From contig WJIL01000006.1 of the NCBI GenBank assembly GCA_014730275.1, positions 100,191 through 148,629 of the forward strand: DNA of 48,439 bases. Direction: 5' to 3'. Positions 10,148 through 44,348 of the stretch are shown here, in pieces. A model generated the notes under the pieces. It was not told the origin of the DNA, searched no databases, and saw nothing but the letters and a program-made list of their open reading frames with translations. Both the position numbers and the translations under genes were made by a program. Source of the stretch: Candidatus Lokiarchaeota archaeon (lineage in GTDB: Archaea > Asgardarchaeota > Thorarchaeia > Thorarchaeales > Thorarchaeaceae). Every line of letters starts with the position of its first letter. Position 1 is the first letter of the stretch.

Positions 10148-11455
10148 TTACAGTGCAAAACCGGTCTTACCAGAGCCCCAAGATTCCAACGCAACTTTCA
10201 GTTCTTCATGTTCCTTGGCGTACTTTCCAACAGGAATATCCTCCATCTTAGCGTCGATAGCTTGCCTGAAGGCCATCGCTCCTGCTTTTGGACCATCAGG
10301 ATGTGCATGGATTGCTCCACCAGAGCCAATCACAATATCTGGGCCAAGATCTTCCATTACTTCTTCAACCATTCCTTGGGAAATGCCTCCACTTGGCATG
10401 GGAGCACTCTGTTCGATGTGCTGAAGAGGCATGGTCATCTCGTGTGCCATGCCGAGAAAACGCTCCTTTAGAATTGGAGCCTTCCCGTAGGGAGCTGGAA
10501 AAACCGTGATATCCGAGCCGCATAGACGGGGTAGCTTGCCAATGACCAAGTTTGACGCAATCCCAGAAATCGGAGATTCATACAGAGCACCAGCAATATC
10601 CATGTGACCAAGAACTGGTACCTTCGTCGATTCATCCTCACATACGGCTCTGAAGGCAGAATATCCAACAGCTAGGAAATTGACCATAAGCGCGTTAGCG
10701 CCGTATTCTTGTGCTCGTTCAGCGTTTTCAAGGACCTTTGGGACGCGGTCGGTGATATTTGCGGTATAGAGAGTTTTCTCCCCCTTTTCCTCGTCAGCTC
10801 TATCTGCGGCTTCCATGAAGAGTGTGACCCGTTCTTCCAAAGTATTGAAGTGTGGATCAGCAAGCAGTTCGTCATCCTTTATGATATCTGATCCACCTAC
10901 TGCAGCTTCATAGAAAAGCTCTGCACCCATTTCCGCAGAAGTGTACACACATGGCTTGATCATGTTGTTAAGAAGGGGGCGTTCTTTCACACCGAGGAGC
11001 TTTCGCAGTCCTTTCATACCAAATTTCGGGCCAGAAAACTCCTTGAGCCAGCTCTTCGGAAAACGCAAGTCCAAGCACTTGATGCGCCCACCCATGGAGA
11101 TGTTCCCAATAACTGTGCTCAACAACATCGGAATCTGAGGGCCAAAATTCTCGTGGGGAAATGCTACTTGAATGATGTACTCTCGGCGTTTCAAGTCGCT
11201 GGGTTTGCTGTATTCATAGTACGGTACTTCGTATATGCCAATCACCTTTGCCACGTGCCGTTTCCTCACTTCAACCGTTTCACCAGGTACCATTGTCCAA
11301 GTGCCAGTCGATTGCTCAATGGCGGCTGCATGAGCCACATCTCGTGCATCCATGAAGGGAGGTAGGCCTACATAGTATGTTCCTATAACATATTTCTCAA
11401 AATCCAGTGCATCCGGCATTGCATCGGGCATTGCCTCAAGCGGGATCCTATCCAT
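10148..11455 (-). CDS. RuBisCO-like protein (form IV-like, probably not a carboxylase)
   Basis: The 435-residue protein aligns end to end with the RuBisCO large subunit. Numbered from ATG 11455, retained features are EQSTGTW near residue 47, GN (117-118), IKP (166-168), the carbamate/metal triad segment KDDE (193-196), SGG (355-357) and GG (379-380). Catalytic positions that differ are the second lysine of KPK (Cys169), the HxHR histidine and arginine (Asp286, Ile287), and the HIH histidine (Val318); the loop-6 lysine is kept (Lys325). This combination rules against ribulose-bisphosphate carboxylation and points to a RuBisCO-like protein; enolase- or isomerase-type chemistry is known in that group. 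TTG at 11464 is an alternative start. Divergent from the folate operon; no methionine-salvage gene is adjacent. Confidence 0.9.
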   Translation of the reverse strand: MDRIPLEAMPDAMPDALDFEKYVIGTYYVGLPPFMDARDVAHAAAIEQSTGTWTMVPGETVEVRKRHVAKVIGIYEVPYYEYSKPSDLKRREYIIQVAFPHENFGPQIPMLLSTVIGNISMGGRIKCLDLRFPKSWLKEFSGPKFGMKGLRKLLGVKERPLLNNMIKPCVYTSAEMGAELFYEAAVGGSDIIKDDELLADPHFNTLEERVTLFMEAADRADEEKGEKTLYTANITDRVPKVLENAERAQEYGANALMVNFLAVGYSAFRAVCEDESTKVPVLGHMDIAGALYESPISGIASNLVIGKLPRLCGSDITVFPAPYGKAPILKERFLGMAHEMTMPLQHIEQSAPMPSGGISQGMVEEVMEDLGPDIVIGSGGAIHAHPDGPKAGAMAFRQAIDAKMEDIPVGKYAKEHEELKVALESWGSGKTGFAL

Positions 11456-11631
11456 AGCAATCAATCCTACAACTCAATATACATGGTGTCTTATGTCCTT
11501 TTGGAGCAAACGTCGAAGTGTATTGAAATTTGTAGAAGATATCATTCAGCTGGCTTTATTTGTCAGATTGACATAGACACACGTAGTATTTCGCTTGGTG
11601 TTCTCGTTATTTGGGAGAGCCAAGTCAACTT

Positions 11632-11636
11632 GGAGG
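11632..11636 (+). promoter_or_regulatory. Ribosome-binding site deciding the fhs start
   Basis: GGAGG lies eight bases upstream of the ATG at 11645. The frame is open 54 codons further upstream to 11483, but family N termini match MIHISEVAEKARINEKYLEPYG, so this site marks the real start. Confidence 0.6.
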
Positions 11637-11644
11637 CTTACAGC

Positions 11645-13240
11645 ATGATTCACATATCAGAAGTAGCGGAGAAAGCCAGGATTAATGAAAAGTATCTTGA
11701 GCCCTACGGAAGGCACATGGCCAAAATAGACTTGAGCATACGAGAAGAACTTGGTGAACGGAAGGGCAAGCTAATCCTTGTTACAGCAACGAATCCTACA
11801 AGCGCCGGAGAGGGAAAAACGACCAATTCCATCGGATTATCGATGGCTCTCAATGCATTGGGCCACAATGCGGTTGTGACGCTTAGAGAGCCTTCTCTGG
11901 GACCTGTATTTGGCATCAAGGGTGGTGCCACAGGTGGCGGGCAATCGAAGGTTCTTCCATCAGACAAAATCAACCTATCATTTACAGCTGATTTTCCAGC
12001 AATAACCTCAGCGCACAATCTGCTTTCTGCTTTGATTGACAATCATATACATCGAACCACGGATGTAGGCATCGACGGTAGACGAGTTTATTGGCCGCGG
12101 GCACTTGATATGAATGATCGTGCTCTTAGAAAGGTCGTTGTTGGGCTTGGCGGAAAGTCAGGAGGGTATCCACGAGAGGACACATTCGTCATTACAGCAG
12201 CATCAGAAATCATGGCAATTCTTGCTCTTTCAAAAGACTATGACGACTTGAAGAAACGGCTCGGAAACATACTGGTTTCAAGAGATTTGGATTTGAATGA
12301 GGTCTACGCAAGGGATTTGAACGCTGAAGGAGCCATGGCAGTTCTGTTGAGTGATGCACTCAAACCTAACCTAGTTCAGACCTCCGAAGGAACTCCAGCC
12401 ATTATTCACACTGGACCGTTTGCCAATATTGCTCATGGCACGAATTCTATCGTGGCTATCGACCTTGCGCTTCGCCTTTTTGATTACGTCGTAGTGGAGG
12501 CAGGATTTGGTGCGGATCTAGGAGCCGAGAAATTCTTCAATATTGTGACGCGCGCAGGGGAATTTGGGGTCGATGCTACTGTGCTGCTAACGTCAATTAG
12601 AGCCCTCAAGAAACATGGTGACGGTGAGCTCAAGAAGGGCTTTTCGAACCTAGAGGCTCACGCAGAAAATCTTGATGAGTTTGGGGTGCCATTCGTTGTT
12701 ACGTTGAATCGCTTTCCAGATGACACCGACGAAGACATTGCTGAACTGAGAAAGTTCTGCGAATCGAAGGGGTGGACCATGGAGGTTTCAGAGGTCTTTG
12801 CAAAGGGTAGCGATGGGGGCAAGGATTTCGCCAAGAGCGTACTTGATGCTGTAGAAAAAGAAAGCACTCTGAACTACACATACAATCTTGATGATGACAT
12901 AAAGACCAAAATCGAGAAGCTGGCCAAGTCAGTGTATGGTGCAGATGATGTCATATACTCAGGCAACGCGGGAGGGGAAATCTGGTCACTAGAAAATCGT
13001 GGCCATGGTGATTTGCCCATCTGTGTTGCGAAAACACAGTTCAGCCTCTCAGATGACTCGAAGTTACTTGGAAAACCTGAGGATTTCAGAGTGAATGTAC
13101 GAGGAGCAGATGTTAGTGCTGGAGCGGGTTTTGTTATTGTGTATATGGGAGACGTAATGCTCATGCCGGGATTGCCTAAGAAACCCGCCGCTGAAGACAT
13201 GGACATCGATAGTAATGGCAATAGGCAAGGTGTAATGTAA
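11645..13240 (+). CDS. fhs: Formate-tetrahydrofolate ligase
   Basis: This enzyme couples formate, ATP and tetrahydrofolate to give 10-formyl-THF, and can run backwards to make ATP. The protein (531 residues from ATG 11645) shows the ATP loop NPTSAGEGKTT, the LREPSLGPVFGIKGGATGGG segment, and the C-terminal DVMLMPGLP motif typical of the family. The length is close to the usual 550. It heads a plus-strand cluster with folD 16 bases downstream and a formiminotransferase-cyclodeaminase after that. The enzyme is common in acetogens and clostridia and is found in a minority of archaea that use folate-type C1 carriers, so an ancient transfer is plausible. It is cytosolic. Confidence 0.95.
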   Translation: MIHISEVAEKARINEKYLEPYGRHMAKIDLSIREELGERKGKLILVTATNPTSAGEGKTTNSIGLSMALNALGHNAVVTLREPSLGPVFGIKGGATGGGQSKVLPSDKINLSFTADFPAITSAHNLLSALIDNHIHRTTDVGIDGRRVYWPRALDMNDRALRKVVVGLGGKSGGYPREDTFVITAASEIMAILALSKDYDDLKKRLGNILVSRDLDLNEVYARDLNAEGAMAVLLSDALKPNLVQTSEGTPAIIHTGPFANIAHGTNSIVAIDLALRLFDYVVVEAGFGADLGAEKFFNIVTRAGEFGVDATVLLTSIRALKKHGDGELKKGFSNLEAHAENLDEFGVPFVVTLNRFPDDTDEDIAELRKFCESKGWTMEVSEVFAKGSDGGKDFAKSVLDAVEKESTLNYTYNLDDDIKTKIEKLAKSVYGADDVIYSGNAGGEIWSLENRGHGDLPICVAKTQFSLSDDSKLLGKPEDFRVNVRGADVSAGAGFVIVYMGDVMLMPGLPKKPAAEDMDIDSNGNRQGVM

Positions 13241-13256
13241 TAGGTGATACGAATTG

Positions 13257-14189
13257 ATGTCGCTTGACTTCACTCCGGACTGTTTTTGTGATGGCAAAGT
13301 CATTGATGGGCGAGCCCTGTCCAAGCAGATTCGTGGCAAAATAGAGGAGGAAGTTGAGCGGTTAACTGAGCTTCATCAACTGCGGCCGAAATTGACAACC
13401 ATACTTGTAGGAGACGACGCTGCATCGAAGAAATATATCAAATACAAACAGAAAGCGTGCAAGAACGTAGGTATTCTCTCCGAAAACTTCAATCTGCCAG
13501 GAGATATACAAGAAGATGAGCTCATCGAGAAAATCGAGGAATTGAATCAGGACAACAAGGTTCACGGAATTCTTGTCCAGCTTCCCCTTCCGAGACATAT
13601 TGACAAAGAGAATATCATCGGGGCTATAGACCCCGACAAAGACGTGGATGGTTTTGCACCACGGAATATCTACAGACTGTTCCATGGCGGAGAAATGTTA
13701 GCAGCAGCTACACCTCAGGGAATCGTGACCATGCTTGATCACCTAGACGTGAAGCTGAAAGGCCTGCAAGCAGTGGTTATCAATAGATCAATCATCGTAG
13801 GCAAACCACTCATCTTCTTGCTCCTCAACCGTGACCTCACCGTTTCGGTATGCCACTCCAAAACTGAGGATTTGAAGAGGCACACAACGAATGCGGACGT
13901 GTTGATAACAGCCGTCGGTCTTCGTGAATCAAAAGAAGACCCATACTTCATCACTGCAGATATGGTCAAAGAGGGCGTAGTGGTCATTGATGTAGCATCA
14001 CCTTACGGTGACTGTGACTTTGACGAGGTCAAGAAGAAAGCCAAATACATCACCCCGGTACCAGGGGGCGTTGGGCCAATGACAATCACAATGCTCCTCA
14101 AGAATGTATTAACCGCCTACGCCTACCAGACAGCGCAAGCAAATGTTCTCGCCACTGATGCCATTGACTACGGATCCTATACCACCTAA
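13257..14189 (+). CDS. folD: Methylene-THF dehydrogenase / methenyl-THF cyclohydrolase
   Basis: This bifunctional enzyme interconverts methylene-, methenyl- and 10-formyl-THF. The 310-residue protein has the YIKYKQKAC segment with the catalytic Tyr-x3-Lys pair, VQLPLPRHID, the PDKDVDGF loop, a Rossmann motif around RSIIVGKPLIFLLL, and the C-terminal PVPGGVGPMTITML signature. ATG at 13257 has GGTGAT about nine bases upstream and is preferred over the TTG at 13254. The cofactor (NADP or NAD) is not evident. It is tightly coupled to fhs upstream. The FTCD gene starts 100 bases after its stop. Confidence 0.95.
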   Translation: MSLDFTPDCFCDGKVIDGRALSKQIRGKIEEEVERLTELHQLRPKLTTILVGDDAASKKYIKYKQKACKNVGILSENFNLPGDIQEDELIEKIEELNQDNKVHGILVQLPLPRHIDKENIIGAIDPDKDVDGFAPRNIYRLFHGGEMLAAATPQGIVTMLDHLDVKLKGLQAVVINRSIIVGKPLIFLLLNRDLTVSVCHSKTEDLKRHTTNADVLITAVGLRESKEDPYFITADMVKEGVVVIDVASPYGDCDFDEVKKKAKYITPVPGGVGPMTITMLLKNVLTAYAYQTAQANVLATDAIDYGSYTT

Positions 14190-14289
14190 AGGGCTTCAGT
14201 CCTCATCGGGTTTATGGAACAATCCCAAACCCTTTTTTGGCGTTGCCTTTGTCGGATGCATAAGAAGCGACAAAAGGGTGACTCTGAAA

Positions 14290-15849
14290 GTGAAAGTGAT
14301 AGAATGTGTGCCCAACTTTAGTGAAGGGCGGGACAAAGAAGTTATTGATGCTATAGGTGATGCGATTAAGAGTGTGGAAGGAGTCAGACTGCTAGATGTG
14401 GAATTTGATCCTGACCACAATCGTTCAGTCTTCACCTTCATCGGCGCCCCGGAGAATGTCAAAGAAGCTGCTCACGAGGCTGCTGATGTGGCTGTTGAAA
14501 AGATAGACATGCGCGAGCACAAGGGTGGTCATCCCCGAATGGGCGCAGTGGACGTAGTGCCATTCATTCCTCTTCACGGCACGACCATTGGTGAATGCAT
14601 AGAACTCTCAAAAGAATTCGGCGAAGAGTTTGCAGCAAAACACGATGTACCAGTGTACCTGTATGCGGAATCTGCAACAAGGCCCGAACGGGAAGAGCTT
14701 CCTAATATCAGACAAGGTGAGTATGAACTCCTGAGTGAGAAAATCGGAGAAGATTCGACAAAGGAGCCAGACTTTGGGCCTAACAAAATCAATCCCAAAG
14801 CAGGAGCTACTGCTACAGGAGCACGGCACTACCTTATCGCCTTCAACATGAACTTGAATACCACCGACGTGGAAGTGGCAAAGGAATGTGCGAATGCGGT
14901 CCGTGCCACGACAGGTGGCTTTGTCTATGTTCAGGGTATCGGGCTTGATTTGCCTGAGAAAGGCATGGTACAGGTCTCCTGTAATCTAATCCATCCCAAA
15001 CGAACCAAAATCCATCAGGTACTGGAAGTCGTCAAGAACGAAGCTAAGAGATTCGGAGCTACCGTAGTAGAAACAGAAATCATCGGCATGGTTCCACTGT
15101 TTGCTCTGCTCGACGCACTCGATTACTACCTGCAACCTGAGCGTCTTGACGAGGATATGATTCTTGACCTCTATTATCTCGGAGGCACCGACGACCCCAC
15201 CGAGAAATCCTTCTCGGAAATGTCGCTTATCGAGTTCAGCGATGCTGTTAGACGAGCCCGTGCAACTCCGGGAGGTGGCAGCGTTGCGGCAGCAATGGGG
15301 GCCTTTGGCAGTGCGCTTGTGTGTATGGTGACTGGTTTGTCACTCACAGGGCGCAAGTTCGCAGCTATCAAACAGGAAATGCTTGATGTTCGTCACGATA
15401 CAGAGACCGAACGGGGAGAGCTGATGGGGCTAGTGGAGGAAGACTCTGAGGCATTCGATCAGGTCATGGCGAAGTACAAGATGAAAGCAGAAAGCGAAGA
15501 AGAGAAGAAAGAGAAAGAGAAACAGATTCAAGAAGCCACCAAGAACGCCGCAGAGGTTCCACTTGAGACAATGCGACGGTCATACAATGCTCTTGAGAAT
15601 GCAGTACCAGCAGCCAAGAAGGGGAATATCAATGCAGTCACAGATGCAGGAGTTGCAGCTCATGCACTCATGGCAGCAATCGAAGGTGCTGCTCTCAATG
15701 TCCGCATCAACTTGGACAGCATTGAAGATGAGTCATACGTCAAAAAGACCCGAAAAGAAGTAGAAGATCTCATAGAAAAGGGCAAGGAAACCAAGGCAGA
15801 AGTTCTAGAACTTGTCGAAAAGAGAATGAAGGAAATGGCGGAGCAATAG
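14290..15849 (+). CDS. Fused glutamate formiminotransferase / formimino-THF cyclodeaminase
   Basis: The protein transfers a formimino group to THF and deaminates the product to methenyl-THF. The start is GTG at 14290, preceded at good spacing by AGGGTGA; it gives ECVPNFSEGRD at the N terminus, and the open frame upstream to 14143 overlaps folD and is not family-like. Domains of the 519-residue product are FTCD_N (about 1-180, with the catalytic His81 in HKGGHPRMGAVDVVPF), FTCD_C (about 182-300) and the helical cyclodeaminase (about 315-510, beginning ATPGGGSVAAAMGAFGSALV). The two-domain fusion is like the animal enzyme. Its partners supply the following C1 steps. The formimino donor may be formiminoglutamate from histidine or formiminoglycine from purines; no hut genes are in the window. 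Confidence 0.93.
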   Translation: MKVIECVPNFSEGRDKEVIDAIGDAIKSVEGVRLLDVEFDPDHNRSVFTFIGAPENVKEAAHEAADVAVEKIDMREHKGGHPRMGAVDVVPFIPLHGTTIGECIELSKEFGEEFAAKHDVPVYLYAESATRPEREELPNIRQGEYELLSEKIGEDSTKEPDFGPNKINPKAGATATGARHYLIAFNMNLNTTDVEVAKECANAVRATTGGFVYVQGIGLDLPEKGMVQVSCNLIHPKRTKIHQVLEVVKNEAKRFGATVVETEIIGMVPLFALLDALDYYLQPERLDEDMILDLYYLGGTDDPTEKSFSEMSLIEFSDAVRRARATPGGGSVAAAMGAFGSALVCMVTGLSLTGRKFAAIKQEMLDVRHDTETERGELMGLVEEDSEAFDQVMAKYKMKAESEEEKKEKEKQIQEATKNAAEVPLETMRRSYNALENAVPAAKKGNINAVTDAGVAAHALMAAIEGAALNVRINLDSIEDESYVKKTRKEVEDLIEKGKETKAEVLELVEKRMKEMAEQ

Positions 15850-34191: not shown

Positions 34192-34365
34192 ATTTGTTTC
34201 ACTCCAATGCAGAAAGCTTCACCAAGGAATATTATGAACTTCGTTCCCAGTTAATAATGTTACTTCTGCATTTCATGAAACAGTAATGCGGGATATCCTA
34301 GTACATGTTCTAAAGAGTTTTCAATTTCTAAGCAAGTAGCTCTCTCGATTCACAGAAGGTATCAA

Positions 34366-36405
34366 TCATTCTTTCCGCTCGGTCATTTCTATCAAGTTGG
34401 CTTCTTCAAGAAATTCCAAAAGCCGGTAGATTACATCTCGTAATTCGTAGCCAGTCTCCGCATGAATATTGTCAGCAATCCGCAAAGCAGAATTATGACC
34501 ATCAATCCAGAAATCAACAAGGGTGAAGACGGGCAGAGTCGTCACGCGAAACGAGTCCAAGATGTCTTTGAGCTCCTTCTCATCCTCGTAGGAGATCTTA
34601 GCGAAAACCGAGTCCTCATCTATTGGTCCTGGCTCACAAGTTTTCACAGGAACTGCGTCGTCCAATGGATGAGGGTCATGACTTGCTTCCGAATCTATTC
34701 CCCATTCATCAAAAACCTCGCTATAGGCTTCTTCCTCGTTTCTGCTTTCCTCCCGGATTTCTGAGAAACCCCGCCAGAAGATATCCTCAGAGATTCCAGG
34801 TACCATTCGTTCTATAGAAAGAATCGCCTCAGAATAGGATTCTCTCAAGAGATGCAGCTTGTGTCTAGCCCACTCCTTGCTTCGAACAAGTCTCTCCTGT
34901 GGTTTCCCTATTCGCATACCCTTGGACGTGGCCAACGAGGTTAGTATGTCATGGCTAATTTCGTCTACCTGTTTAGAGAATTCTTGAACCACTGTGTCGG
35001 ACAGCCAGCTCACAGTGTCCTCATCAACAGTACTTAGGATATAGAGTAATGTGCCCGTAAGCATGGCGTATTTTTTGAGCATATCATTGTCAACATGCTC
35101 AGGTAGATCCCTGTCAGTATGATAGTAGGTATACGGCCACGATGTCAAGCCAACCATTGGAATATCAAAATCTGGGGAGTTGAATATGTAGTAGTCACTA
35201 CCCCCGCTGAATGGGATTATGTCCCAACGGAATTTCGCAACGCCTCTGAGACCCGCAAAAAGCTCGTCATTCTTAACTAGATATCTCATCAGCCATCGGC
35301 ACAAAGGCCCAATGTAGGAATAATTTGCAAGAGAAGGCATTACTGCAAGCATTGAACCGCCTGTCTCTTCTTGATTGTTCCCAATCATATCCAGATTGAC
35401 TCCCCCGACAATCCTGTCGATGGTCCCCTGTTCGCGTCTATGCTTAAGATACGCTACTGAGCCTAGGTATTCCGGCATATAGAGAAAAACGATGCTGCGT
35501 TTGGGTATCGACATGGATTCATTCTCAGCCAATGCTGCAAACGTGCGTGCCAGCTCCATTGAAGTTGCAACGCCAGACGCATTGTCAACCGCACTCGGTT
35601 TGGGATGGTCAAGATGAGATGTTACAATTGCTTCTTGTTCGGTTTCTCCTTGGATTCGAGCCTCTACTATGGAGAATCTGGATTCTTTGAAGGTAGCATC
35701 TACTGAAGCACGAACCGTTATACGATCGTTTTGCAGGTAGTTTCGAAGGGCATCGCCATGAGATGGGGAAATCACAAATCCAAAAGCTCGCTCTTCTTCC
35801 CCATACCACCAGAAGCTTGAGTATAGCAGGCATTCTGCAAGTCGAGGTTCCCGATGAAGAGGTAGAGCTCCTCGTCTATCAGTCACGATTCCAATAGCTC
35901 CGAATTCGCTAACCGCTAACTTCCGAATATGATCCGGATTTGAACTTGTTAGAACAATTTTCCCTTCTACGTCTTTTCCTTCATAGTCGGACCGTGCTTT
36001 GCCTTCACCAACATCGAGAAGCTCGGTCTCTACAGCTTGTCCATCGGTACCCACAGAACGCTGAACAAGTGATAGTGGGGCTTCTTCAAAACTGGCCAAT
36101 CTTCCATACGGCATGAGGTTCCTAAGTCTGAGATCAGAAATGCTTGGAGATATGATTTCTAGAGTTCCAGATTTCGGAACCCATTCTTTAGCAGAAGGAA
36201 AATTGTAGAACTGATGGTCATCTTTTGCAGGAAGCTCCAGTATGTTATACTCAATACCATGTTTATCAAAGAATTCTGTTACGATATCCACAGCATCAGA
36301 ATAGCCAGGAGTTAGCTGTGTCCTGTGTGTCATCGCCAATCTGCGAATAACATCCTTTGCAGTTTGCGGATGAAACTCCTCATTGATTATTCTCTGAATT
36401 GTCAT
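34366..36405 (-). CDS. M28-family metallopeptidase with PA-like insert, last gene of the cyanophycin-type operon
   Basis: The protein (679 residues from ATG 36405; GTG at 36414 is possible, but AGGAA fits the ATG better) has M28 metal-site motifs: TSHLDHPKPSAVDNASGVA (near 265-285, His and bridging Asp), MPEYLGS, GGVNLDMIGNN, and YYHTDRDLPEHV. A protease-associated-like domain precedes or interrupts the catalytic part (EGKDVEGKIVLTSS region). The last 80 residues look like a winged-helix or helical domain (ALRIADNIHAETGYELRDVI). It starts 23 bases after cphB on the same strand, so it may act on dipeptides or peptides from polymer breakdown. No signal peptide is seen, so it is probably cytosolic. 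Confidence 0.82.
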   Translation of the reverse strand: MTIQRIINEEFHPQTAKDVIRRLAMTHRTQLTPGYSDAVDIVTEFFDKHGIEYNILELPAKDDHQFYNFPSAKEWVPKSGTLEIISPSISDLRLRNLMPYGRLASFEEAPLSLVQRSVGTDGQAVETELLDVGEGKARSDYEGKDVEGKIVLTSSNPDHIRKLAVSEFGAIGIVTDRRGALPLHREPRLAECLLYSSFWWYGEEERAFGFVISPSHGDALRNYLQNDRITVRASVDATFKESRFSIVEARIQGETEQEAIVTSHLDHPKPSAVDNASGVATSMELARTFAALAENESMSIPKRSIVFLYMPEYLGSVAYLKHRREQGTIDRIVGGVNLDMIGNNQEETGGSMLAVMPSLANYSYIGPLCRWLMRYLVKNDELFAGLRGVAKFRWDIIPFSGGSDYYIFNSPDFDIPMVGLTSWPYTYYHTDRDLPEHVDNDMLKKYAMLTGTLLYILSTVDEDTVSWLSDTVVQEFSKQVDEISHDILTSLATSKGMRIGKPQERLVRSKEWARHKLHLLRESYSEAILSIERMVPGISEDIFWRGFSEIREESRNEEEAYSEVFDEWGIDSEASHDPHPLDDAVPVKTCEPGPIDEDSVFAKISYEDEKELKDILDSFRVTTLPVFTLVDFWIDGHNSALRIADNIHAETGYELRDVIYRLLEFLEEANLIEMTERKE

Positions 36406-36428
36406 TGTTTTCACTTCCTGAAATTCTA

Positions 36429-37244
36429 CTAACGATGGGTCACTGGATAAGGCAAATCTGTCTTGGACATCCCGAAAGTCTCAAGGTTGATTTTGTGGCC
36501 AAACGGGATCACAGAAAGCTCAAGCGAACCTACTCCAATTCGCCCAGATGGTTCCAGATTACCAGAATTATTGAACGATATGCCGTTTCCTCTAAGGAAA
36601 GTGGTGACATCCGTTCCAATCACAACTGCAGATTCATCTCTAAGCATAACTGCAGTATCATTGGTTATTCCAATCCCAGTTTTTGATGGATGCTCCGATA
36701 ATGCATGGACTAAGCGATAAAATCGGTTTCTTGCTATGAAATGGGTATCTAGGACTAGATCCGGTAACAATGCCAGACCTTCCTTTATGGGTATCTCACC
36801 TTTTCTGAGAGCTTGACCAGCACCGCCCCCTGCAATCATAACTTCACTCATTGCCATAGCCCCCGCGCTTGTTCCCGATAGGACAATATCCTCACCTATC
36901 CGACCCTGCAATGCTGAGTGAAGGGGCGTGTCTTTGACTTTTCGTACCAAGCGTGATTGATCTCCGCCAACAAAGAAAATTGCATTTGCTTGGTTAACTT
37001 GTTCAATCGTATCCGAGTCTTTGCCGTCATCTCTGCTCAAGACACGGAGCACGGACACATCTGTGAAACCCATGCTTTCAAATTGGTGACAGTACGTCTC
37101 TGAAGTGCTTTCTGGATAGCTACTTGCTGTTGGAAAGATACGTATTCTTGAATCAGAGTCTAGTTCATTAGTGATAGCCAGAAAAACTGGCTCTCGCGGG
37201 TAAATGTCCTCGTTTCCTCCAATAAGAACAAACGTGGTAGACAT
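36429..37244 (-). CDS. cphB: Cyanophycinase (peptidase family S51)
   Basis: The 271-residue serine exopeptidase has VLIGGNEDIYP at the N terminus, FFVGGDQSRLV, and the nucleophile elbow SGTSAGAMAMSEVM with Ser126. LDTHFIARNRFYRL corresponds to the cyanophycinase substrate loop (DQHF-type, with Thr in place of the usual Gln). The enzyme cleaves beta-Asp-Arg dipeptides from cyanophycin. The frame extends to an ATG at 37259, but the GGAGGT there is spaced eight bases from the ATG at 37244, which is taken as the start. That start is one base after the stop of the synthetase paralogue, so translation is coupled. Length fits the family (about 270). Confidence 0.9.
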   Translation of the reverse strand: MSTTFVLIGGNEDIYPREPVFLAITNELDSDSRIRIFPTASSYPESTSETYCHQFESMGFTDVSVLRVLSRDDGKDSDTIEQVNQANAIFFVGGDQSRLVRKVKDTPLHSALQGRIGEDIVLSGTSAGAMAMSEVMIAGGGAGQALRKGEIPIKEGLALLPDLVLDTHFIARNRFYRLVHALSEHPSKTGIGITNDTAVMLRDESAVVIGTDVTTFLRGNGISFNNSGNLEPSGRIGVGSLELSVIPFGHKINLETFGMSKTDLPYPVTHR

Positions 37245-37245
37245 T

Positions 37246-39762
37246 CTAGAAACCTCCATTTTCGCGAATCTTTCGAATCAAATCGATAGCGCCGTGCGGT
37301 TCGTTGGTAGTTACAAGAACCAAATCTTCCTTGCTTAGACTCTTCCTCAGTTCTTCCATTCCTTCCTCGAGAGTTGCAGCCACATCAAAGCACTCCCCAC
37401 AGTCAAATACTGTTTCAGGATATTCAATGTCGTAAACAATTGCTTTCTTGTAATGTCGCGAAATGCCATTCAGTACTGTCCGTATTGCTTGAGTTGAAAG
37501 GCCACTAGGAAGGCGAAGCAAGCCGTAGACGTCCCCGAGATCCATTCGACGTTTGTACCTGCTGACAAATCTGCTTGCAATGCCTATGTTACTTGGTTTG
37601 GTTGCTAAATCGACAAACAAGTATCTATCTTGAACCTGAAAGAGGTTCATTGCCCCGGGCAGCTGTTCGGGGCTGTTGTTGAAAGTGAGGAGTGCATTCT
37701 TTATCTCACCTAGTTCAGCTCCGTTTGTATATGCTGCGGCTGCCGCAGCTAGAAGATTCTCAATATTGAAATGAGCTATGCCTTCAAATGTCAGTGGTGC
37801 ATCTAGATAATTGATGAGCGGCAGTACTTTCCCCTGATCAATAAGAACAAGCATCTTTCCCATCACAGTAGCAATCAGGTGGTTCTCTTTCTGTATGGTA
37901 TCAAATAGTGGATGATCAGGTTCTCGCGATATAATCACGATTTCTCCCTGTGTCTCAGAGATGATTTCATCAAATTCCGGAATTTGGGTGTTGATTATGA
38001 GTCTGCCCGAAGATCTGACGCGTCTCGAGAGCAAGCGTCTCCCATCGGTCATCCGTTCCTGTAAAACCGGGTAGTCTTCTCGTGATTCATAGGAATTAAG
38101 GACTATCGCGGTATCTACATCTCGATAGGCCAAACCTGAAGAAACAGAATCCAAGGCACTCTGTTCCAATATGGCAAACTCTACTCCAGGATCCCCCAGA
38201 ACCATCTTGTGTCCTTCGTGATTTGCACCGGTCTCACTTGTGATTTTGTTACCTGCGATTCTAACACCTGTTGAGCATGCAAGCCCAGTTTGTTTACCAC
38301 TCATTCGTAGCAAATGATTCAGAAGTGTTGCAACTATGGTTTTACCGTGACTGCCGGATATCGAGGCTATTGGAATCCTTAGCTCATCACTATTTGGATT
38401 AAGGTTTCTCAAAATCAGCTCTTCTACATCAGCCTGTTTGCCCCTGAAGGGATAGTGATAATTACGTACTTCTAATTGGGGCGATAGCGCGACTACGACA
38501 CCGCGCCCCTCAGAAATAGGTTCTGATATGGTTTCTGCAATGATGTGTATCTCCAGCAATGAAACCCTCAAAGCACGCGCAATTCGCTTCGACAGAAAAG
38601 CATTGAAGGGATGAAATCGTTCAGTGACATCTTCAGCTGTTCCCCCAGCATTCATCGTAGCTACGCTAGCAAGGTCAATTACTTCACCTTCTGGCGGAAT
38701 AGTCCCCGATGAGAAACCTTGTTTTGCCAAGGTCATTTCATAATCTAGGCCTGTCGAGATTGAGGAAAGAGCTGTCTCTTCATATTTTCCACGTGATGGT
38801 CGAGAATTCTCAATAGCTACGAGTTCATCAATAGTATGTTCGCCGTCACCAGTCACTCTTGGGGGTTTGTTTTTAATCGCAAATACCGAGTCTCCCACCA
38901 GAACTACTCGATAAAGATTGCCCGGAATCCAATTCTGTATCAGAACCTGATTTTCTGTTCTGCAGCATTCTCCGAATGCCCTTTTGAGTTCTTCTTCATT
39001 TTCCAAATTCGCATAGGTTTTTGTCCCAAAGGTTTCTTTCAGAGGTTTTATGACAACAGGATATCCTATTCTCTCTGCATAATCTATTGCCTCATCTATT
39101 GTTCCAGCCCTATAGCTGATTGGAACTTCGAAACCCATATCCCGGAGGATTTTCTCTAGTGTCGATTTGTAGACGGTTGTGTCTACCGCTAGAACACTTG
39201 TATGTTCGGGAATAGACCCCCACATGAGCCGACGATTCTTGCCATATCCATATTGAACAAGTTCCCGATGGATCTGATAATGGGGTATATTCAGATCTTC
39301 AGCCTTCGATGCTATTAGTCTGGTATTCATTCCTACGCCATGAGTCCTCACGAAATAACTGTAGGATTTCTTCCAATCATCAACGATTAATTCTTCACCC
39401 ATGAATATTCGATTCAGAATATCAATGACATGTCGTGTCGCCTCAGCTGTTGCTTCCGGAAAATTGGTTTCTATGAAGAGGGTTAGCCCATCAGATTCTG
39501 AACTCAGAAGTCGGTATTGAAACGGGATTTTCCTCTCTTTGGCAACAAAATACGAGGCTATACTCACCAGTGCTTCTGAAAGTACCATATCTTCTGAATC
39601 AATGGGGCAGTTGGAAAACGATGAGTTCGGACCAGCTACTTCGCCCATAGTTTGATGAATGATGTCCTCTTCTTCGGTGGTTAGTGAGACAAGTATGCCT
39701 TGAGAGTTCGAATATGTATTGGGCCCATGATATTCAATCAGGGAATCGAGTTCGAGTATCAC
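37246..39762 (-). CDS. Degenerate cyanophycin synthetase paralogue (probable pseudoenzyme)
   Basis: The 838-residue protein matches the neighbouring CphA along its full length, including the GYG segment (171-173), VTGDGEHTIDEL and the FNIENLLAA motif. Both catalytic centres look damaged. In the ATP-grasp domain the GRG loop reads GTK (246-248), the EExxxGRDxR segment reads QNWIPGNLYR, and the D...EIN metal ligands read IH and VAL (about 405-425). In the Mur-ligase domain the P-loop survives as GSHGKT (470-475), but ETARGG reads EQSALD and DYAHN reads DLATK. Frame and length are intact, so it is maintained, not decayed. Its GTG start overlaps the cphA stop (GTGA). A structural or regulatory subunit is the simplest guess. 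Confidence 0.85.
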   Translation of the reverse strand: MILELDSLIEYHGPNTYSNSQGILVSLTTEEEDIIHQTMGEVAGPNSSFSNCPIDSEDMVLSEALVSIASYFVAKERKIPFQYRLLSSESDGLTLFIETNFPEATAEATRHVIDILNRIFMGEELIVDDWKKSYSYFVRTHGVGMNTRLIASKAEDLNIPHYQIHRELVQYGYGKNRRLMWGSIPEHTSVLAVDTTVYKSTLEKILRDMGFEVPISYRAGTIDEAIDYAERIGYPVVIKPLKETFGTKTYANLENEEELKRAFGECCRTENQVLIQNWIPGNLYRVVLVGDSVFAIKNKPPRVTGDGEHTIDELVAIENSRPSRGKYEETALSSISTGLDYEMTLAKQGFSSGTIPPEGEVIDLASVATMNAGGTAEDVTERFHPFNAFLSKRIARALRVSLLEIHIIAETISEPISEGRGVVVALSPQLEVRNYHYPFRGKQADVEELILRNLNPNSDELRIPIASISGSHGKTIVATLLNHLLRMSGKQTGLACSTGVRIAGNKITSETGANHEGHKMVLGDPGVEFAILEQSALDSVSSGLAYRDVDTAIVLNSYESREDYPVLQERMTDGRRLLSRRVRSSGRLIINTQIPEFDEIISETQGEIVIISREPDHPLFDTIQKENHLIATVMGKMLVLIDQGKVLPLINYLDAPLTFEGIAHFNIENLLAAAAAAYTNGAELGEIKNALLTFNNSPEQLPGAMNLFQVQDRYLFVDLATKPSNIGIASRFVSRYKRRMDLGDVYGLLRLPSGLSTQAIRTVLNGISRHYKKAIVYDIEYPETVFDCGECFDVAATLEEGMEELRKSLSKEDLVLVTTNEPHGAIDLIRKIRENGGF
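37252..37257 (-). promoter_or_regulatory. Ribosome-binding site of cphB inside the end of the upstream gene
   Basis: Minus-strand GGAGGT is made from the last Gly-Gly codons of the synthetase paralogue and lies eight bases before the cphB ATG at 37244. It decides the cphB start and ties its translation to the upstream gene. Confidence 0.6.
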
Positions 39763-42368
39763 AACCCCCGACCTCCAGCCATTTCTTGATTCCTGTACTC
39801 AGATATGGCATCGTATACTGTTTCAAAGCTTTCAAAATTCACAAAAATGAGTTCGTCTTCTACTGAATTCTGCAAAGCCCGTTTAATGGCTCCAGGTTCT
39901 ATAGAATAAGAGTGAATGTCTTTTTCGGACATTCCTGCGGAGAGCAAGCTTTCTTGCAAGATTTGTGCTAGTTCGCCACGTTCCCGTCCCCGGGTGTTTT
40001 TGTCCTCTTTGAGGTAGACTTTATCGAACGTGTCAGCTACAATTTTCATTATCTCTCGATATTCCGTATCTCTGCGGTTCCCGGGTAAACAGATCGCCCC
40101 AGTAAGTCTTGCTAACCCCCATCTCTTTTTCAGTTTAAACAGGAATTTTGAAACCAGCTCCATAGCAGCTTTGTTGTGTGCATAATCGATAAACACATTG
40201 AATGAACCAATTCGTAGCATATTGCTTCGACCGGGATTCAATTCGGGAGTAGGAGCAAAAGATAGCAAACCAGCACGTATCGTATCAAGGCTCACATCCA
40301 TTGCATGTGCAATTGCTGTTGCTGCCAACGCATTCTCAATGTTAAAGTCGGCAATTCCTTCAAAGGTGATTGGTACTGAATCAACCGCAACCAAAGGGAG
40401 CAATCTTTGCCCGTCATGTATGCTGATGGTTTCATCCCGAATTGTAACATACGGCAAGTCTTCGTCCTTGAATTTGTTCAGTCGTTGATTTTGGGGGGAT
40501 TGACTGAATCCGATTTTCTTTCCACCAAAACGCTCTGATTGTTCCCAAACTAAATCATCATCGCAATTAACTACAGCCCAACCATCAGGATGCGTGACTT
40601 CATAGAGCAAACCTTTGACTTCAGCCATACCTTCAACGGTTTCTATACCATGTTCTCCCAAGTGTTCCTCCGTAACATTTAGCACCGTTGATATGTCAGC
40701 CTGATCAAATCCCAGCCCCCGTTTGAGTATCCCACCTCTAGCTGTTTCGAGAACCGCAGCATCAGTAGTAGCATCCTTGAGGATAACCTCAGCGGACCAT
40801 GGCCCGGTACAGTCGCATTGCAAAATTCGAGAACCGCGAACATAGATTCCTTCAGTGGTAGTTGTACCCACGTCATACCCCGCCAGTCTCAATATATGGG
40901 AAACCAATAGCGTTGTTGTAGTTTTGCCATTCGTTCCGGTTATGGGAATAATCGGAATTCTGGAATCCTTTTCATCCGGGAAAAGCTGTGAGACAATTGC
41001 CTTCCCAGGTTCTCTAGCTTTTCCCTGCCTTGGATGAATATGCATCCGCAGTCCTGGGCTTGCGTTTATTTCGATTATTCGCCCCCCATTCTGATACCAG
41101 CTCTCAGTGACATTGGGAGCAATAACATCAACACCACAAACATCCATGCCTAGCAATCTTGCAGCACGGATGGCAATAGTCTCATTAACAGGATGTATTT
41201 CGTCGGTTTTGTCGATTGCTACCCCGCCTGTACTCAAATTCGCGGTAGTCTTGAGTATGACTTTTCGTCCTTGTTCAGGAGTAGAATCCAAGTTCAATTG
41301 CTGTTTCCGTAGACAAAGACGGGTCTGCTCATCAATTGTAATCTTGGTCAAAGGGAGTTCATGACCTTCTCCTCGCATCGGATCTGCATTCACCTCGTCA
41401 ATGAGCTCCTCTACCGTATGCTCACCGTCACCGGTAACCGATGCTGGTTTTCTCTCAGAAACAGCCACTACCTTCTTTCCGACAACTAATACACGGTAAT
41501 CTCTGCCTTCCACATGTTCCTCTATGAGAACTTGGTCGGAGAAATTTCTGGCTGAATCAAACGCCTTTCGTGCAGATTCTACAGATCTAAGATTCGTAGT
41601 TGCTCCTCGCCCCTTGCTGGAATCCACAGGCTTGATTGCAAAGGAACCATCAATATCTTCGATTACCGCTTTGCCTTCGTCCCAAGTTTCTACAGCTGAA
41701 CCCTCGGGAACAGGCAACCCACCCATCTTGAGGACATCTTTAGTCATTGATTTTAATTGTGCAATTTTCATGCCCACAAATGAGGTGGCATCTGTGGTGG
41801 TAGCTTCTATTTTCCGATTCTTGGCGCCATAACCAAGCTGTACTAGGCTATAATCATTGAGTCGCATCGAGGGAATCCCTTTCTCGTCCGCAGCACTAAC
41901 AATAGAGTCTGTGCTTGGTCCCAAGGAGTATTTGTAATAATCGCGCTCTAGCGTTTCTATGATACCACCAAAATCAACTGGTTCATCAGCGTTCATTGCA
42001 TTTAGAACATAGACAGCATCGTAGGCTGCGTTACTAGCTACCTTCTCGGTGTCCATTTCAATGACATACTCATAGCAACTCTCGATTTTCTCGATACTCC
42101 TAACCACCTTGTGTTCATTTCCCGTTGCCTCAGTCAAGAGGGCAGCTGTGAGATTTGGTAATAGCGGCCAAAGTGGAAAACCATCTTCCCGTTTCTCAAA
42201 ATTCGGTTCTTTCAGGTCCAAGTGCGATTGTAACTCAGAAAGTATTTTCCGATATTTACCCACATTAACAACATCATCATCCCCCGTTTCTACTTGTGGT
42301 TTTATTGTGGACCGTTCAGGTGCGTATACACTTGGACCTAAGTAAATCCGAACATCAACTACTTTCAA
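39759..42368 (-). CDS. cphA: Cyanophycin synthetase
   Basis: This is the catalytic member of the pair, with the domain order of CphA1. An N-terminal domain ends in VQLGYGAKNRKI. An ATP-grasp domain follows with FAIKPVDSSKGRGATTNL, LIEEHVEGRDYRVLVV, CGVDVIAP and RIIEINASPGLRMHIHP. A Mur-ligase-like domain then shows the ATP loop ITGTNGKTTTTL, LETARGGILKRGLGFDQ, LNVTEEHLGEHG, FNIENALAA and DYAHNKAAM. The enzyme builds a polyaspartate backbone with arginine side chains, using ATP at two sites. The frame opens at a TTG at 42377, but a second TTG at 42368 has AAGGAA nine bases upstream and matches the family N terminus, giving 869 residues. It heads a four-gene minus-strand operon. Confidence 0.92.
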   Translation of the reverse strand: MKVVDVRIYLGPSVYAPERSTIKPQVETGDDDVVNVGKYRKILSELQSHLDLKEPNFEKREDGFPLWPLLPNLTAALLTEATGNEHKVVRSIEKIESCYEYVIEMDTEKVASNAAYDAVYVLNAMNADEPVDFGGIIETLERDYYKYSLGPSTDSIVSAADEKGIPSMRLNDYSLVQLGYGAKNRKIEATTTDATSFVGMKIAQLKSMTKDVLKMGGLPVPEGSAVETWDEGKAVIEDIDGSFAIKPVDSSKGRGATTNLRSVESARKAFDSARNFSDQVLIEEHVEGRDYRVLVVGKKVVAVSERKPASVTGDGEHTVEELIDEVNADPMRGEGHELPLTKITIDEQTRLCLRKQQLNLDSTPEQGRKVILKTTANLSTGGVAIDKTDEIHPVNETIAIRAARLLGMDVCGVDVIAPNVTESWYQNGGRIIEINASPGLRMHIHPRQGKAREPGKAIVSQLFPDEKDSRIPIIPITGTNGKTTTTLLVSHILRLAGYDVGTTTTEGIYVRGSRILQCDCTGPWSAEVILKDATTDAAVLETARGGILKRGLGFDQADISTVLNVTEEHLGEHGIETVEGMAEVKGLLYEVTHPDGWAVVNCDDDLVWEQSERFGGKKIGFSQSPQNQRLNKFKDEDLPYVTIRDETISIHDGQRLLPLVAVDSVPITFEGIADFNIENALAATAIAHAMDVSLDTIRAGLLSFAPTPELNPGRSNMLRIGSFNVFIDYAHNKAAMELVSKFLFKLKKRWGLARLTGAICLPGNRRDTEYREIMKIVADTFDKVYLKEDKNTRGRERGELAQILQESLLSAGMSEKDIHSYSIEPGAIKRALQNSVEDELIFVNFESFETVYDAISEYRNQEMAGGRGL

Positions 42369-42458
42369 AACCCACAATTCCTTTGATATGTTTCAACAAG
42401 CCTGCCAATCATTTTGGACTAACTAGAACTCGGCAATAGCCTCAAGCATTCTGCTTCT

Positions 42459-42492
42459 CACATATAGGCTCTTTTCGATAGTTAAATATTCT
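42459..42492 (-). promoter_or_regulatory. Candidate promoter of the cyanophycin-type operon
   Basis: Two minus-strand TATA-like stretches lie upstream of cphA: GCCTATATGT (about 42461-42470) and AATATTTAAC (about 42482-42491). They would give leaders of about 65 and 90 bases. The choice cannot be made from sequence. Confidence 0.3.
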
Positions 42493-42551
42493 ATGACTGC
42501 GGCTTAAGAGAAATAACTGTCAGAAAGAAACACGAAACAGTTCAATGGGGC

Positions 42552-42589
42552 AAAAAAAGGGAGAGCCCCCGAGTTATCCCAAGGGGGCT
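42552..42589 (-). terminator. Hairpin-plus-T-tract terminator of the MFS gene
   Basis: On the minus strand AGCCCCC and GGGGGCT form a 7-base-pair GC stem around a 12-base loop, followed by CTCCC and seven T residues. The first arm overlaps the stop codon of the transporter (42588-42590). This is the clearest terminator in the window and resembles a bacterial intrinsic terminator; archaeal polymerase also stops at T tracts. Confidence 0.75.
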
Positions 42590-44030
42590 ACTCCTCAGCC
42601 ATGATTGATATCGTATCTTCCTGTTTTTCTGAACCGTTGACCAGCGTAGGTTTCTCATGATTAAGCCCATGTCGAATGACAGCTGCTCCTGAAAGAGATA
42701 TAATTCCACACAAGGTGAGGGTAAGGGGGAAGCCCGCAACTCCAATTAGCCAGCCGAAGAACACAATCTGTGGGATTGCTAGCAATGTTGAAATAGTAGG
42801 AGATAGAGAGTACAGACTGTTACGAATTTTGTTGGGTACCACATCAACCATTTCCCGCTGAGTCAGGATTTGGGCGAATCCCCCAAAGAAGCCTGTCACT
42901 GTGAAGGTTATGGCCATCATTGTAATGGGGAGGATACTTGACGAAGGCACTTGTAGAACCACGAGATCCGTAAACGGAAACAGGAACGTCACCATGTTGC
43001 TGCTGGGGTCTGGTGGGAGAAACTGCATTATCGCTGCAAATGCAATATAGAACACAAAGCCGACACTTTGCAGAACTCGAAATCGTGGAATCCACGTCTC
43101 GGGATCGAATCTTTTGCTCCAGACACCGCTTCGTTCCTGAGATATGATTCCTGCAAAGAACAAGAGAGTCCTGAAGCTTGAAACAGCAACATCAGTCAAT
43201 AGATAGCTGAAATACATCGGGAACAGTATGAGTTGGCCCCAAACAGTCGAAGTGCTCATCACGATGGTTCCGCCAAGGATGACATACAGAATCCATTTGT
43301 CACTGAAGAGATACCGAACGCCGTCCTTCAGAACACCAGTATACTCCTCAAGTGAGGGTTTGTCAGGTCGAACCGCTTCTACTTCTGGGAAATCCTCAAT
43401 GGCCAACATGACAACGATGGCAATTATCCCACAGAGAACACCCTGCAATTGGAATACCCACGCCCTTCCCAGAATAGCAGCGAGAATGCTTCCAGGAATG
43501 AGAGCGGCAGTAGAAACAATTTGAAACAACATTCCGACCCGCCCCCACAGAACGCCAAACTGTTTCCTTTGCTGATCGCCAGGCATCGCAGCAGTGTAGT
43601 TGTTGTCAAACCACGCTTGAAAGGCTCCACTCAATTGGGAATTTCCTATTCCTTGGAGACCATAAATGGCTATGAGCAGTACAATAGGAGTACCTGAGGT
43701 CACAAACGAGGTCAGATAGAAACCCGCGGCAAAACACACGAAAGCAGAACTAATTATGTACCGTTGGCCAATCCAATCTCCGATAGCACCAGTAGGATAA
43801 TCTAGACCCGTCTGAACAGCCAGCTGAACAGCCACAAGAATACCAACAACACTTAGTCCTTCAATGTAGGATCCGTTTCCAACTGCTTCAGCCACGAAAA
43901 TTGTGTAGAATGTTGTGCTCAGTGTTACAGTAGCTGAAACCAGTGGAAGGAATAAAGCTAGGGTCTTAGCTAGATCCAATATCCGATCGTTCGCATCCTT
44001 GAGGCCGAAGAATCTTTCTAGCGTGCTCAT
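42588..44030 (-). CDS. Major facilitator superfamily transporter
   Basis: The 480-residue protein has about twelve membrane helices. The segment GLDYPTGAIGDWIGQRYIISSAF between helices 2 and 3 matches the MFS motif A (GxLaDrxGrr). A long charged loop after helix 6 (EDFPEVEAVRPDKPSLEEY) separates the two halves. It is probably a secondary exporter or importer of a small solute; no substrate motif is evident. The upstream 60 bases hold repeated TGTA-type elements that could be an operator. It ends in a strong terminator. Confidence 0.88.
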   Translation of the reverse strand: MSTLERFFGLKDANDRILDLAKTLALFLPLVSATVTLSTTFYTIFVAEAVGNGSYIEGLSVVGILVAVQLAVQTGLDYPTGAIGDWIGQRYIISSAFVCFAAGFYLTSFVTSGTPIVLLIAIYGLQGIGNSQLSGAFQAWFDNNYTAAMPGDQQRKQFGVLWGRVGMLFQIVSTAALIPGSILAAILGRAWVFQLQGVLCGIIAIVVMLAIEDFPEVEAVRPDKPSLEEYTGVLKDGVRYLFSDKWILYVILGGTIVMSTSTVWGQLILFPMYFSYLLTDVAVSSFRTLLFFAGIISQERSGVWSKRFDPETWIPRFRVLQSVGFVFYIAFAAIMQFLPPDPSSNMVTFLFPFTDLVVLQVPSSSILPITMMAITFTVTGFFGGFAQILTQREMVDVVPNKIRNSLYSLSPTISTLLAIPQIVFFGWLIGVAGFPLTLTLCGIISLSGAAVIRHGLNHEKPTLVNGSEKQEDTISIMAEE

Positions 44031-44348
44031 GAATTAAGCCTCGTACAGTAATTGTACATTATTACATTTTGTTCGGTTATGTTACATTTAAGTCTTTGTT
44101 TCACAGCCATATCCTTGAGTGTTGCTTCGGTCATGGATTCATCCTCAAGACATAGTTGTCTGGTCACCAATCAAGAAGAAAGTGCAAAAATGTGACCAGA
44201 TTTGCGGTCATTTTTGGGCTAAGGTAATACCAAACTGGTGCAGGTAATACTTGACAATCATACCTTATCTCGAAAGAAACTGAAAGCTAGGATACTGCGT
44301 GACACACAAGCTCGCCCATCACATAAGACATGTTTCGGCGAAATAGCT
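44031..44348. other. Intergenic region with repeats upstream of the MFS gene
   Basis: This 318-base gap holds no convincing gene. Near the transporter it contains TGTAC-type repeats (44043-44068) and two TTACATTT copies (44062-44069 and 44082-44089). Farther up there is a perfect 8-base inverted repeat, CTGGTCAC (44160-44167) and GTGACCAG (44192-44199), and a direct repeat GGTAATAC at 44223-44230 and 44243-44250. A TATA-like ACTTAAATG on the minus strand near 44084-44092 may serve the transporter. Functions are not known. Confidence 0.5.

What the first reader, a model, noticed from the sequence alone, without database searches (positions are those of the whole stretch)
34366..42368. A cyanophycin-type operon in an archaeon: CphA, CphA paralogue, CphB and M28 peptidase
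Four genes run head to tail on the minus strand. The first overlap is GTGA, the second gap is one base with the ribosome-binding site inside the upstream gene, and the third gap is about 23 bases. CphA has intact family motifs and CphB has the GTSAGA nucleophile elbow. Cyanophycin is mainly known from bacteria, so a complete synthesis-and-breakdown operon in an apparent Asgard-type archaeon is uncommon. The M28 peptidase could replace isoaspartyl dipeptidase. That the product is cyanophycin rather than another isopeptide polymer is inference.
Basis: partly seen in the sequence, partly recalled or inferred. Interest (0 to 1): 0.85.

Follow-up and report, generated by a model that had tools for sequence, protein, structure and literature searches.

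The report
Cyanophycin operon in an Asgard archaeon
An Asgard archaeon carries a conserved four-gene set for making and breaking down a cyanophycin-like nitrogen-storage polymer, otherwise known from bacteria, and one of the four genes is a full-length copy of the polymer-making enzyme that appears to have lost both of its ligase active sites.

Summary
In detail: four co-directional genes, with the overlap and gaps as stated, encode a cyanophycin synthetase (CphA1), a CphA paralogue, a cyanophycinase (CphB) and an M28 metallopeptidase. The host is archaeal and very likely Asgard (ESCRT-II gene; same-genus genome syntenic on both sides of the operon). The same operon, about 50% identical, lies in another genus of the family. 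A third genus keeps an in-frame cphA1-M28 fusion scar. In 228 genomes of the phylum, CphB occurs in exactly the seven with CphA1; five of these belong to a second family with a canonical CphA1.

(1) CphA1 is not fully canonical: the N-domain site that makes primers is missing, and two catalytic residues differ (H267K, D585E). (2) The paralogue keeps the whole fold and is as conserved as its neighbours, but has lost the Mg-binding residues of the ATP-grasp site and the key residues of the Mur-ligase site. It therefore looks like a pseudo-synthetase partner, unlike cyanobacterial CphA2 and proteobacterial CphA'.

Best explanation: an archaeal cyanophycin store made by CphA1 with a non-catalytic partner and emptied by CphB, with M28 as probable dipeptidase. 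The product's identity and the roles of the paralogue and M28 are inferred.

The parts
39759..42368 (-). cphA1: cyanophycin synthetase with ATP-grasp (G) and Mur-ligase (M) sites; N-domain primer site missing; H267K, D585E
   Evidence: TIGR02068 901 bits > 850; 7wac match E=7e-172; residue table; TTG start is shared with G218, open frame reaches 42377
37246..39762 (-). Full-length CphA paralogue; both ligase active sites degenerate (pseudo-synthetase)
   Evidence: TIGR02068 429 bits < 850; D431H, E450A, N452S, H586R, Kcarb->R, YAHN and GDRRD lost in both genera; model pLDDT 86, TM 0.82 to TeCphA1
36429..37244 (-). cphB: cyanophycinase (peptidase family S51)
   Evidence: TIGR02069 193 bits > 126.6; 3en0 match E=2e-39; GTSAGA and family-invariant D171, H173, Q101, R177, R179 kept
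34366..36405 (-). M28-family zinc peptidase with DUF4910 region and about 190-residue C-terminal extension; candidate dipeptidase
   Evidence: PF04389 1.5e-19; H267, D277, E315, D342, H432 invariant in 12 relatives; closest folds M28 aminopeptidases and glutamate carboxypeptidases
42472..42505 (-). Conserved upstream element, probable promoter/operator of the operon
   Evidence: AAGCCGCAGTCAtAGaATATTTaACTATcGAAAA is nearly the same upstream of the G218 cphA1 remnant; weaker in G195
34280..44310 (.). Segment (operon plus upstream MFS gene) absent from same-genus genome G219: an insertion/deletion within a syntenic chromosome
   Evidence: blastn of L138: 89% flanks to 34279 and from 44311, about 220 bp in between

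Best explanation
This is an archaeal cyanophycin-type storage operon. CphA1 elongates a poly-aspartate backbone at its ATP-grasp site and adds arginine (or lysine) to each side chain at its Mur-ligase site, using ATP. It cannot make its own primers by the known N-domain cleavage, so it depends on primers, probably chain ends left by CphB. The paralogue is a catalytically dead, full-length synthetase that most likely assembles with CphA1 as a structural, chain-binding or nucleotide-sensing subunit. CphB cuts the polymer back to beta-aspartyl dipeptides, and M28 most likely splits these dipeptides (or trims chain ends). Shown: gene content, order, conservation, co-occurrence and residue losses. 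Inferred: product, primer dependence, subunit role, M28 substrate.
For: CphA1 and CphB pass curated equivalog cut-offs. CphB is present in exactly the seven of 228 phylum genomes that hold CphA1 (one in 5.8e12 by chance if genomes were independent, though related genomes are not). The four-gene order is kept in G195 at 48-55% identity with unrelated flanks, and G218 has a cphA1-M28 fusion scar. All other tested G- and M-site residues of CphA1 are kept, including K220, K261, R309, D431, E450, N452, K499, E558, H586 and the carbamate lysine. The paralogue's losses are shared by both genera, yet it is about as conserved as CphA1, domain by domain, and keeps the fold. In PMC9262961, CphA1 without the N-site is primer dependent.
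Against: H267 (H or Q in 49 bacterial CphA) is K and D585 (D in 49/49) is E, so substrate or activity may differ. No M28 enzyme is known to act on beta-aspartyl-arginine, and the window's genome has IaaA-type genes that could do this step. Nothing tested shows that the paralogue binds CphA1. The operon is rare: 2 of 47 family genomes, plus one scar.
Confidence: 0.62

Rival explanations
1. The operon makes and recycles a different isopeptide polymer (another residue than Arg/Lys on the Asp side chains, or another backbone), with CphA1 retuned by H267K and D585E.
For: Two catalytic positions changed in both genera and K267 also in the G218 remnant; K at 267 in none of 49 bacterial CphA. Long stem of the pair, 1.2 changes per column.
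Against: CphB keeps the family-invariant residues and scores well above the cyanophycinase cut-off. CphA1 is above the cyanophycin synthetase cut-off.
Confidence: 0.2
2. The paralogue is an active enzyme with relocated catalytic residues (for example ATP binding by its kept M-domain P-loop) or a CphA2-like enzyme that joins dipeptides.
For: P-loop GKT, E558, K220, K261, R309 and R458 are kept. A tandem second cphA is common in beta/gammaproteobacteria.
Against: CphA2 works by the G site, which here has lost both acidic Mg ligands and N452; the M site lost H586, the carbamate lysine, YAHN and GDRRD. Bacterial CphA' keeps the G site (14/14).
Confidence: 0.12
3. M28 is not part of the polymer pathway, or acts as a general aminopeptidase; the dipeptides are split by the chromosomal IaaA-type enzymes.
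For: IaaA-type genes in the window's genome and in its cph-less sister G219. An M28 paralogue is widespread in the phylum without cph genes.
Against: The M28 copy in the operon is a distinct full-length clade kept in both operons (1440+ bits against about 200-320 for the others) and in the G218 scar. G195 has no IaaA-type gene and no IadA above cut-off.
Confidence: 0.35
4. The contig is bacterial contamination binned with an archaeon.
For: Cyanophycin synthetase is otherwise reported as bacterial (PMC11915815).
Against: A same-genus genome is about 89% identical on both sides of the operon; GC matches the surroundings; a second genus has the operon on a 417-kb contig; no bacterial CphA closer than about 42% in the 80-locus sample.
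Confidence: 0.02

Closest known systems
Bacterial CphA1 (Synechocystis UTEX2470, Trichodesmium erythraeum; TIGR02068)
   Same: N-G-M architecture, nearly all G- and M-site catalytic residues, clustered with cyanophycinase
   Different: N-domain Cx19HxxEH site missing, H267K, D585E; archaeal host; full-length degenerate tandem partner
Cyanobacterial CphA2 (PDB 7ta5, 8fxh)
   Same: Second CphA-like protein without the N-site motif
   Different: CphA2 lacks the M P-loop and M lid and works by its G site; the paralogue keeps M P-loop and M region and has lost the G-site Mg ligands
Beta/gammaproteobacterial tandem cphA'-cphA (e.g. Nitrosomonas, L054)
   Same: Tandem pair in which the full CphA has a degraded N-site and a replaced H267 (Q)
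   Different: Bacterial CphA' keeps N-site and G-site and loses the M site; here the partner has lost all three, lies downstream, and H267 is K
Cyanophycinase CphB (PDB 3en0, TIGR02069)
   Same: Ser nucleophile elbow and family-invariant residues, operon position next to cphA
   Different: Only about 30% identical to bacterial and f8 copies; archaeal
IadA, IaaA and CphZ (M14-like) isoaspartyl dipeptidases
   Same: Same expected last step
   Different: The operon encodes an M28 enzyme instead; M28 is not a known cyanophycin dipeptidase

Membership tests
Cyanophycin synthetase CphA1 (39759-42368) | Score above TIGR02068 equivalog cut-off | tested here: met
   901 against 850 bits
Cyanophycin synthetase CphA1 (39759-42368) | G-site residues K220, K261, R309, R323, N394, D431, E450, G456, R458 | tested here: met
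   all kept
Cyanophycin synthetase CphA1 (39759-42368) | G-site H267 (H or Q in bacteria) | tested here: inconclusive
   K in own, G195 and G218; position varies within the family (33 H, 16 Q) so not strictly defining
Cyanophycin synthetase CphA1 (39759-42368) | M-site K499, T500, E558, H586, carbamate Lys, YAHN, D585 | tested here: inconclusive
   all kept except D585E
Cyanophycin synthetase CphA1 (39759-42368) | N-site Cx19HxxEH (in about 83% of CphA1, so not defining) | tested here: not met
   absent; makes it the primer-dependent type if the rule of PMC9262961 holds
Cyanophycin synthetase CphA1 (39759-42368) | Polymer formation from Asp and Arg | not testable with these tools
   needs enzyme assay
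CphA1 (paralogue 37246-39762) | TIGR02068 cut-off and G/M catalytic residues | tested here: not met
   429 < 850 bits; Mg ligands and M-site residues lost
CphA2 (paralogue 37246-39762) | Active G site, M P-loop and M lid lost | tested here: not met
   opposite pattern
Proteobacterial CphA' (paralogue 37246-39762) | G site kept, M site lost | tested here: not met
   G site lost; not in the CphA' clade
Cyanophycinase CphB (36429-37244) | TIGR02069 cut-off; Ser elbow and invariant residues | tested here: met
   193 > 126.6; GTSAGA, Q101, D171, H173, R177, R179
Cyanophycinase CphB (36429-37244) | Releases beta-Asp-Arg from cyanophycin | not testable with these tools
   needs assay
M28 peptidase (34366-36405) | PF04389 match and metal ligands | tested here: met
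   70.9 > 21.3 bits; H267, D277, E315, D342, H432 invariant
M28 peptidase (34366-36405) | Glu-Glu pair (general base plus ligand) | tested here: inconclusive
   only one Glu (PEY/NEF); Clostridium 3k9t also has a single Glu, APET
Isoaspartyl dipeptidase (IadA, IaaA) | Membership of the M28 gene | tested here: not met
   no NCBIfam hit at all for it
Asgard archaea (host) | ESCRT-II gene in the genome | tested here: met
   PF05871 over cut-off, none of 14 control genomes
Asgard archaea (host) | Profilin | tested here: inconclusive
   no match in own genome, but nothing rang in any control either

The most novel reading that the evidence does not exclude
Asgard archaea of one family use a hetero-oligomeric cyanophycin synthetase in which a fully degenerate CphA copy is an obligatory non-catalytic subunit replacing the lost primer-making N domain, together with a new M28-type isoaspartyl dipeptidase: an archaeal cyanophycin pathway with two components of a kind not described.
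Probability: 0.3. Interest if true: 0.78.

Novelty: new variant of a known kind. Interest (0 to 1): 0.62.

Why it matters
A 2025 survey of Mur-domain proteins found CphA only in bacteria (PMC11915815), and only cyanophycinase homologues, in a few archaea including Asgards, had been mentioned (PMC9723716). A conserved archaeal operon in two genera, a scar in a third, and a canonical CphA-CphB set in a second Asgard family would extend this nitrogen-storage polymer to archaea. The pseudo-synthetase raises a testable question about how CphA1 without an N-site starts its chains. The M28 gene is a candidate for a last-step enzyme, which a 2023 paper called undiscovered in several groups (PMC10206079).

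Tried and rejected
Contamination: rejected by synteny with the same-genus genome and by a second operon on a 417-kb contig. One archaeal clade of all CphA1: the free tree separates the two families, but the AU test does not reject one clade (p 0.175), so one or two acquisitions stays open. Paralogue as a duplicate of its neighbour CphA1: not rejected (p 0.342), not shown. Paralogue as CphA2 or CphA': rejected by residue pattern. A pseudo-CphA orthologue in 46 cphA-bearing bacterial genomes: none, best 338 bits, the score of ordinary CphA. M28 context in family f11: no cph genes nearby. RNA genes or tRNA at the insertion site: none. 'of' cannot centre on bacterial loci, so other phyla were not surveyed. 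Profilin search was uninformative.

Full report
What is there. On the minus strand, four genes run head to tail: CphA1 (39759-42368, TTG start), a CphA paralogue (37246-39762), CphB (36429-37244) and an M28 peptidase (34366-36405). CphA1 and CphB pass the curated NCBIfam equivalog cut-offs (901 > 850; 193 > 126.6) and M28 passes Pfam's; the paralogue reaches only 429 bits on the CphA model. The MFS gene upstream ends in a terminator-like hairpin with a T run (about 42551-42591), so the operon is probably its own transcription unit.

The host. The window is the end of a 148,629-base contig in a 3.64-Mb, 99.5%-complete genome. That genome has an ESCRT-II gene over Pfam's cut-off, seen in none of 14 control genomes; among prokaryotes this family is an Asgard marker (general knowledge). 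A genome of the same genus (G219) is about 89% identical to the window on both sides but lacks exactly 34280-44310, the operon plus the MFS gene. GC is 44-46% across the operon, like its surroundings. Contamination is therefore excluded for practical purposes.

Conservation. Among 228 genomes of the phylum, CphA-like genes occur in eight. G195, another genus of the family, has the same four genes in the same order (51, 48, 55 and 54% identity) with unrelated flanks. G218, a third genus, has one open frame made of CphA1 residues 4-274 joined to M28 residues 639-677: an internal deletion that removed most of the operon (unless the assembly is wrong). It also keeps a near-identical upstream element. 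Five genomes of a second family (f8) hold canonical CphA1, four of them with CphB on the same contig. CphB occurs in exactly the seven genomes with a complete or near-complete CphA1 and in none of the other 221.

CphA1. Residues were read from an alignment with 49 long bacterial CphA, using published catalytic residues (PMC9262961, PMC9427784). All tested G- and M-site residues are kept, with two exceptions found in both genera: H267K (33 H and 16 Q in bacteria, never K; K also in the G218 remnant) and D585E (49/49 D in bacteria). The N-domain Cx19HxxEH site, which cuts cyanophycin into primers, is missing. CphA1 of this type is primer dependent in the published work; about one sixth of bacterial CphA1 lack the motif. 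So the enzyme is expected to be active but primer dependent; altered substrate choice is possible.

The paralogue. In both genera it has lost R323, N394, D431, E450, N452 and G456 at the ATP-grasp site, and D585, H586, the carbamate lysine, YAHN and GDRRD at the Mur-ligase site. It keeps the M-domain P-loop and E558. It is about as conserved between the genera as CphA1, domain by domain, so it is not a decaying pseudogene. Its predicted structure (pLDDT 86) is a whole cyanophycin synthetase, TM 0.82 to TeCphA1. CphA2 and proteobacterial CphA' show the opposite loss: they keep the G site and lose the M site. In eight proteobacterial loci, CphA' keeps the N-site in seven (the eighth has gaps there), while its partner CphA has lost C59 and has Q at 267 in all eight. 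A division of labour between tandem copies therefore has a parallel in bacteria, but a partner dead at all three sites does not, among the loci seen here. No orthologue turned up in 46 cphA-bearing bacterial genomes.

Origin. In a 67-row tree the pair from this family falls, on a long stem, with Bacillota and proteobacterial CphA (97*), and f8 falls with acidobacterial, myxobacterial and other CphA (99*). A single archaeal clade is not rejected (p 0.175). Descent of the paralogue from its neighbour is not rejected either (p 0.342). Transfer from bacteria is likely, but the number of events is open.

CphB and M28. CphB keeps the Ser elbow and all residues invariant in eight compared cyanophycinases. 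M28 belongs to a large Asgard family, but the operon copies form their own full-length type. Metal ligands are kept, and the closest folds are M28 aminopeptidases and glutamate carboxypeptidases, some of which are known (general knowledge) to act on acidic or gamma-linked substrates. G195 has no IaaA-type gene and no IadA above cut-off; the window's genome has IaaA-type genes, as does its cph-less sister. An AstE/AspA-type gene is in all three, including the cph-less G219. M28 is thus the best candidate for the last step, most clearly in G195, but unproven.

Literature. A 2025 survey found CphA only in bacteria (PMC11915815). A 2022 paper noted cyanophycinase in a few archaea, including Asgards (PMC9723716). 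No paper found in the open library describes an archaeal CphA; subscription literature was not searchable.

Verdict. A real, conserved archaeal operon of the cyanophycin kind, with a variant CphA1, a degenerate full-length partner and an M28 enzyme: a new variant of a known kind. The polymer's identity and the partner's role need the bench.

Noticed in passing
L039, L052, L054, L057, L063, L064, L074, L086 (proteobacterial loci): Tandem cphA'-cphA pairs: the partner CphA has lost C59 and has Q at 267, while cphA' keeps N- and G-sites and loses the M site, which looks like a division of labour.
   Followed up: partly
L015 11551-12477 (G218): In-frame fusion of the start of cphA1 to the end of the M28 gene, a scar of a lost operon.
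   Followed up: partly
L019 5776-7106 (G040): Mur-ligase half of a CphA in two frames between cphA1 and cphB; a broken second copy or a frameshift of the draft assembly.
   Followed up: no
window 10148-15849: RuBisCO large-chain homologue beside formate-THF ligase, methylene-THF dehydrogenase and formiminotransferase genes.
   Followed up: no
L138 7266-7489 (G219 empty site): About 220 bases with GC-rich, partly palindromic sequence in place of the operon; no Rfam or tRNA match.
   Followed up: partly
window 42551-42591: Terminator-like hairpin followed by T run after the MFS gene, separating it from the operon.
   Followed up: no
window 42588-44030: MFS transporter present in the operon-bearing genome and absent from the syntenic site in G219; relatives are widespread in the family, so a link to the operon is not shown.
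   Followed up: partly
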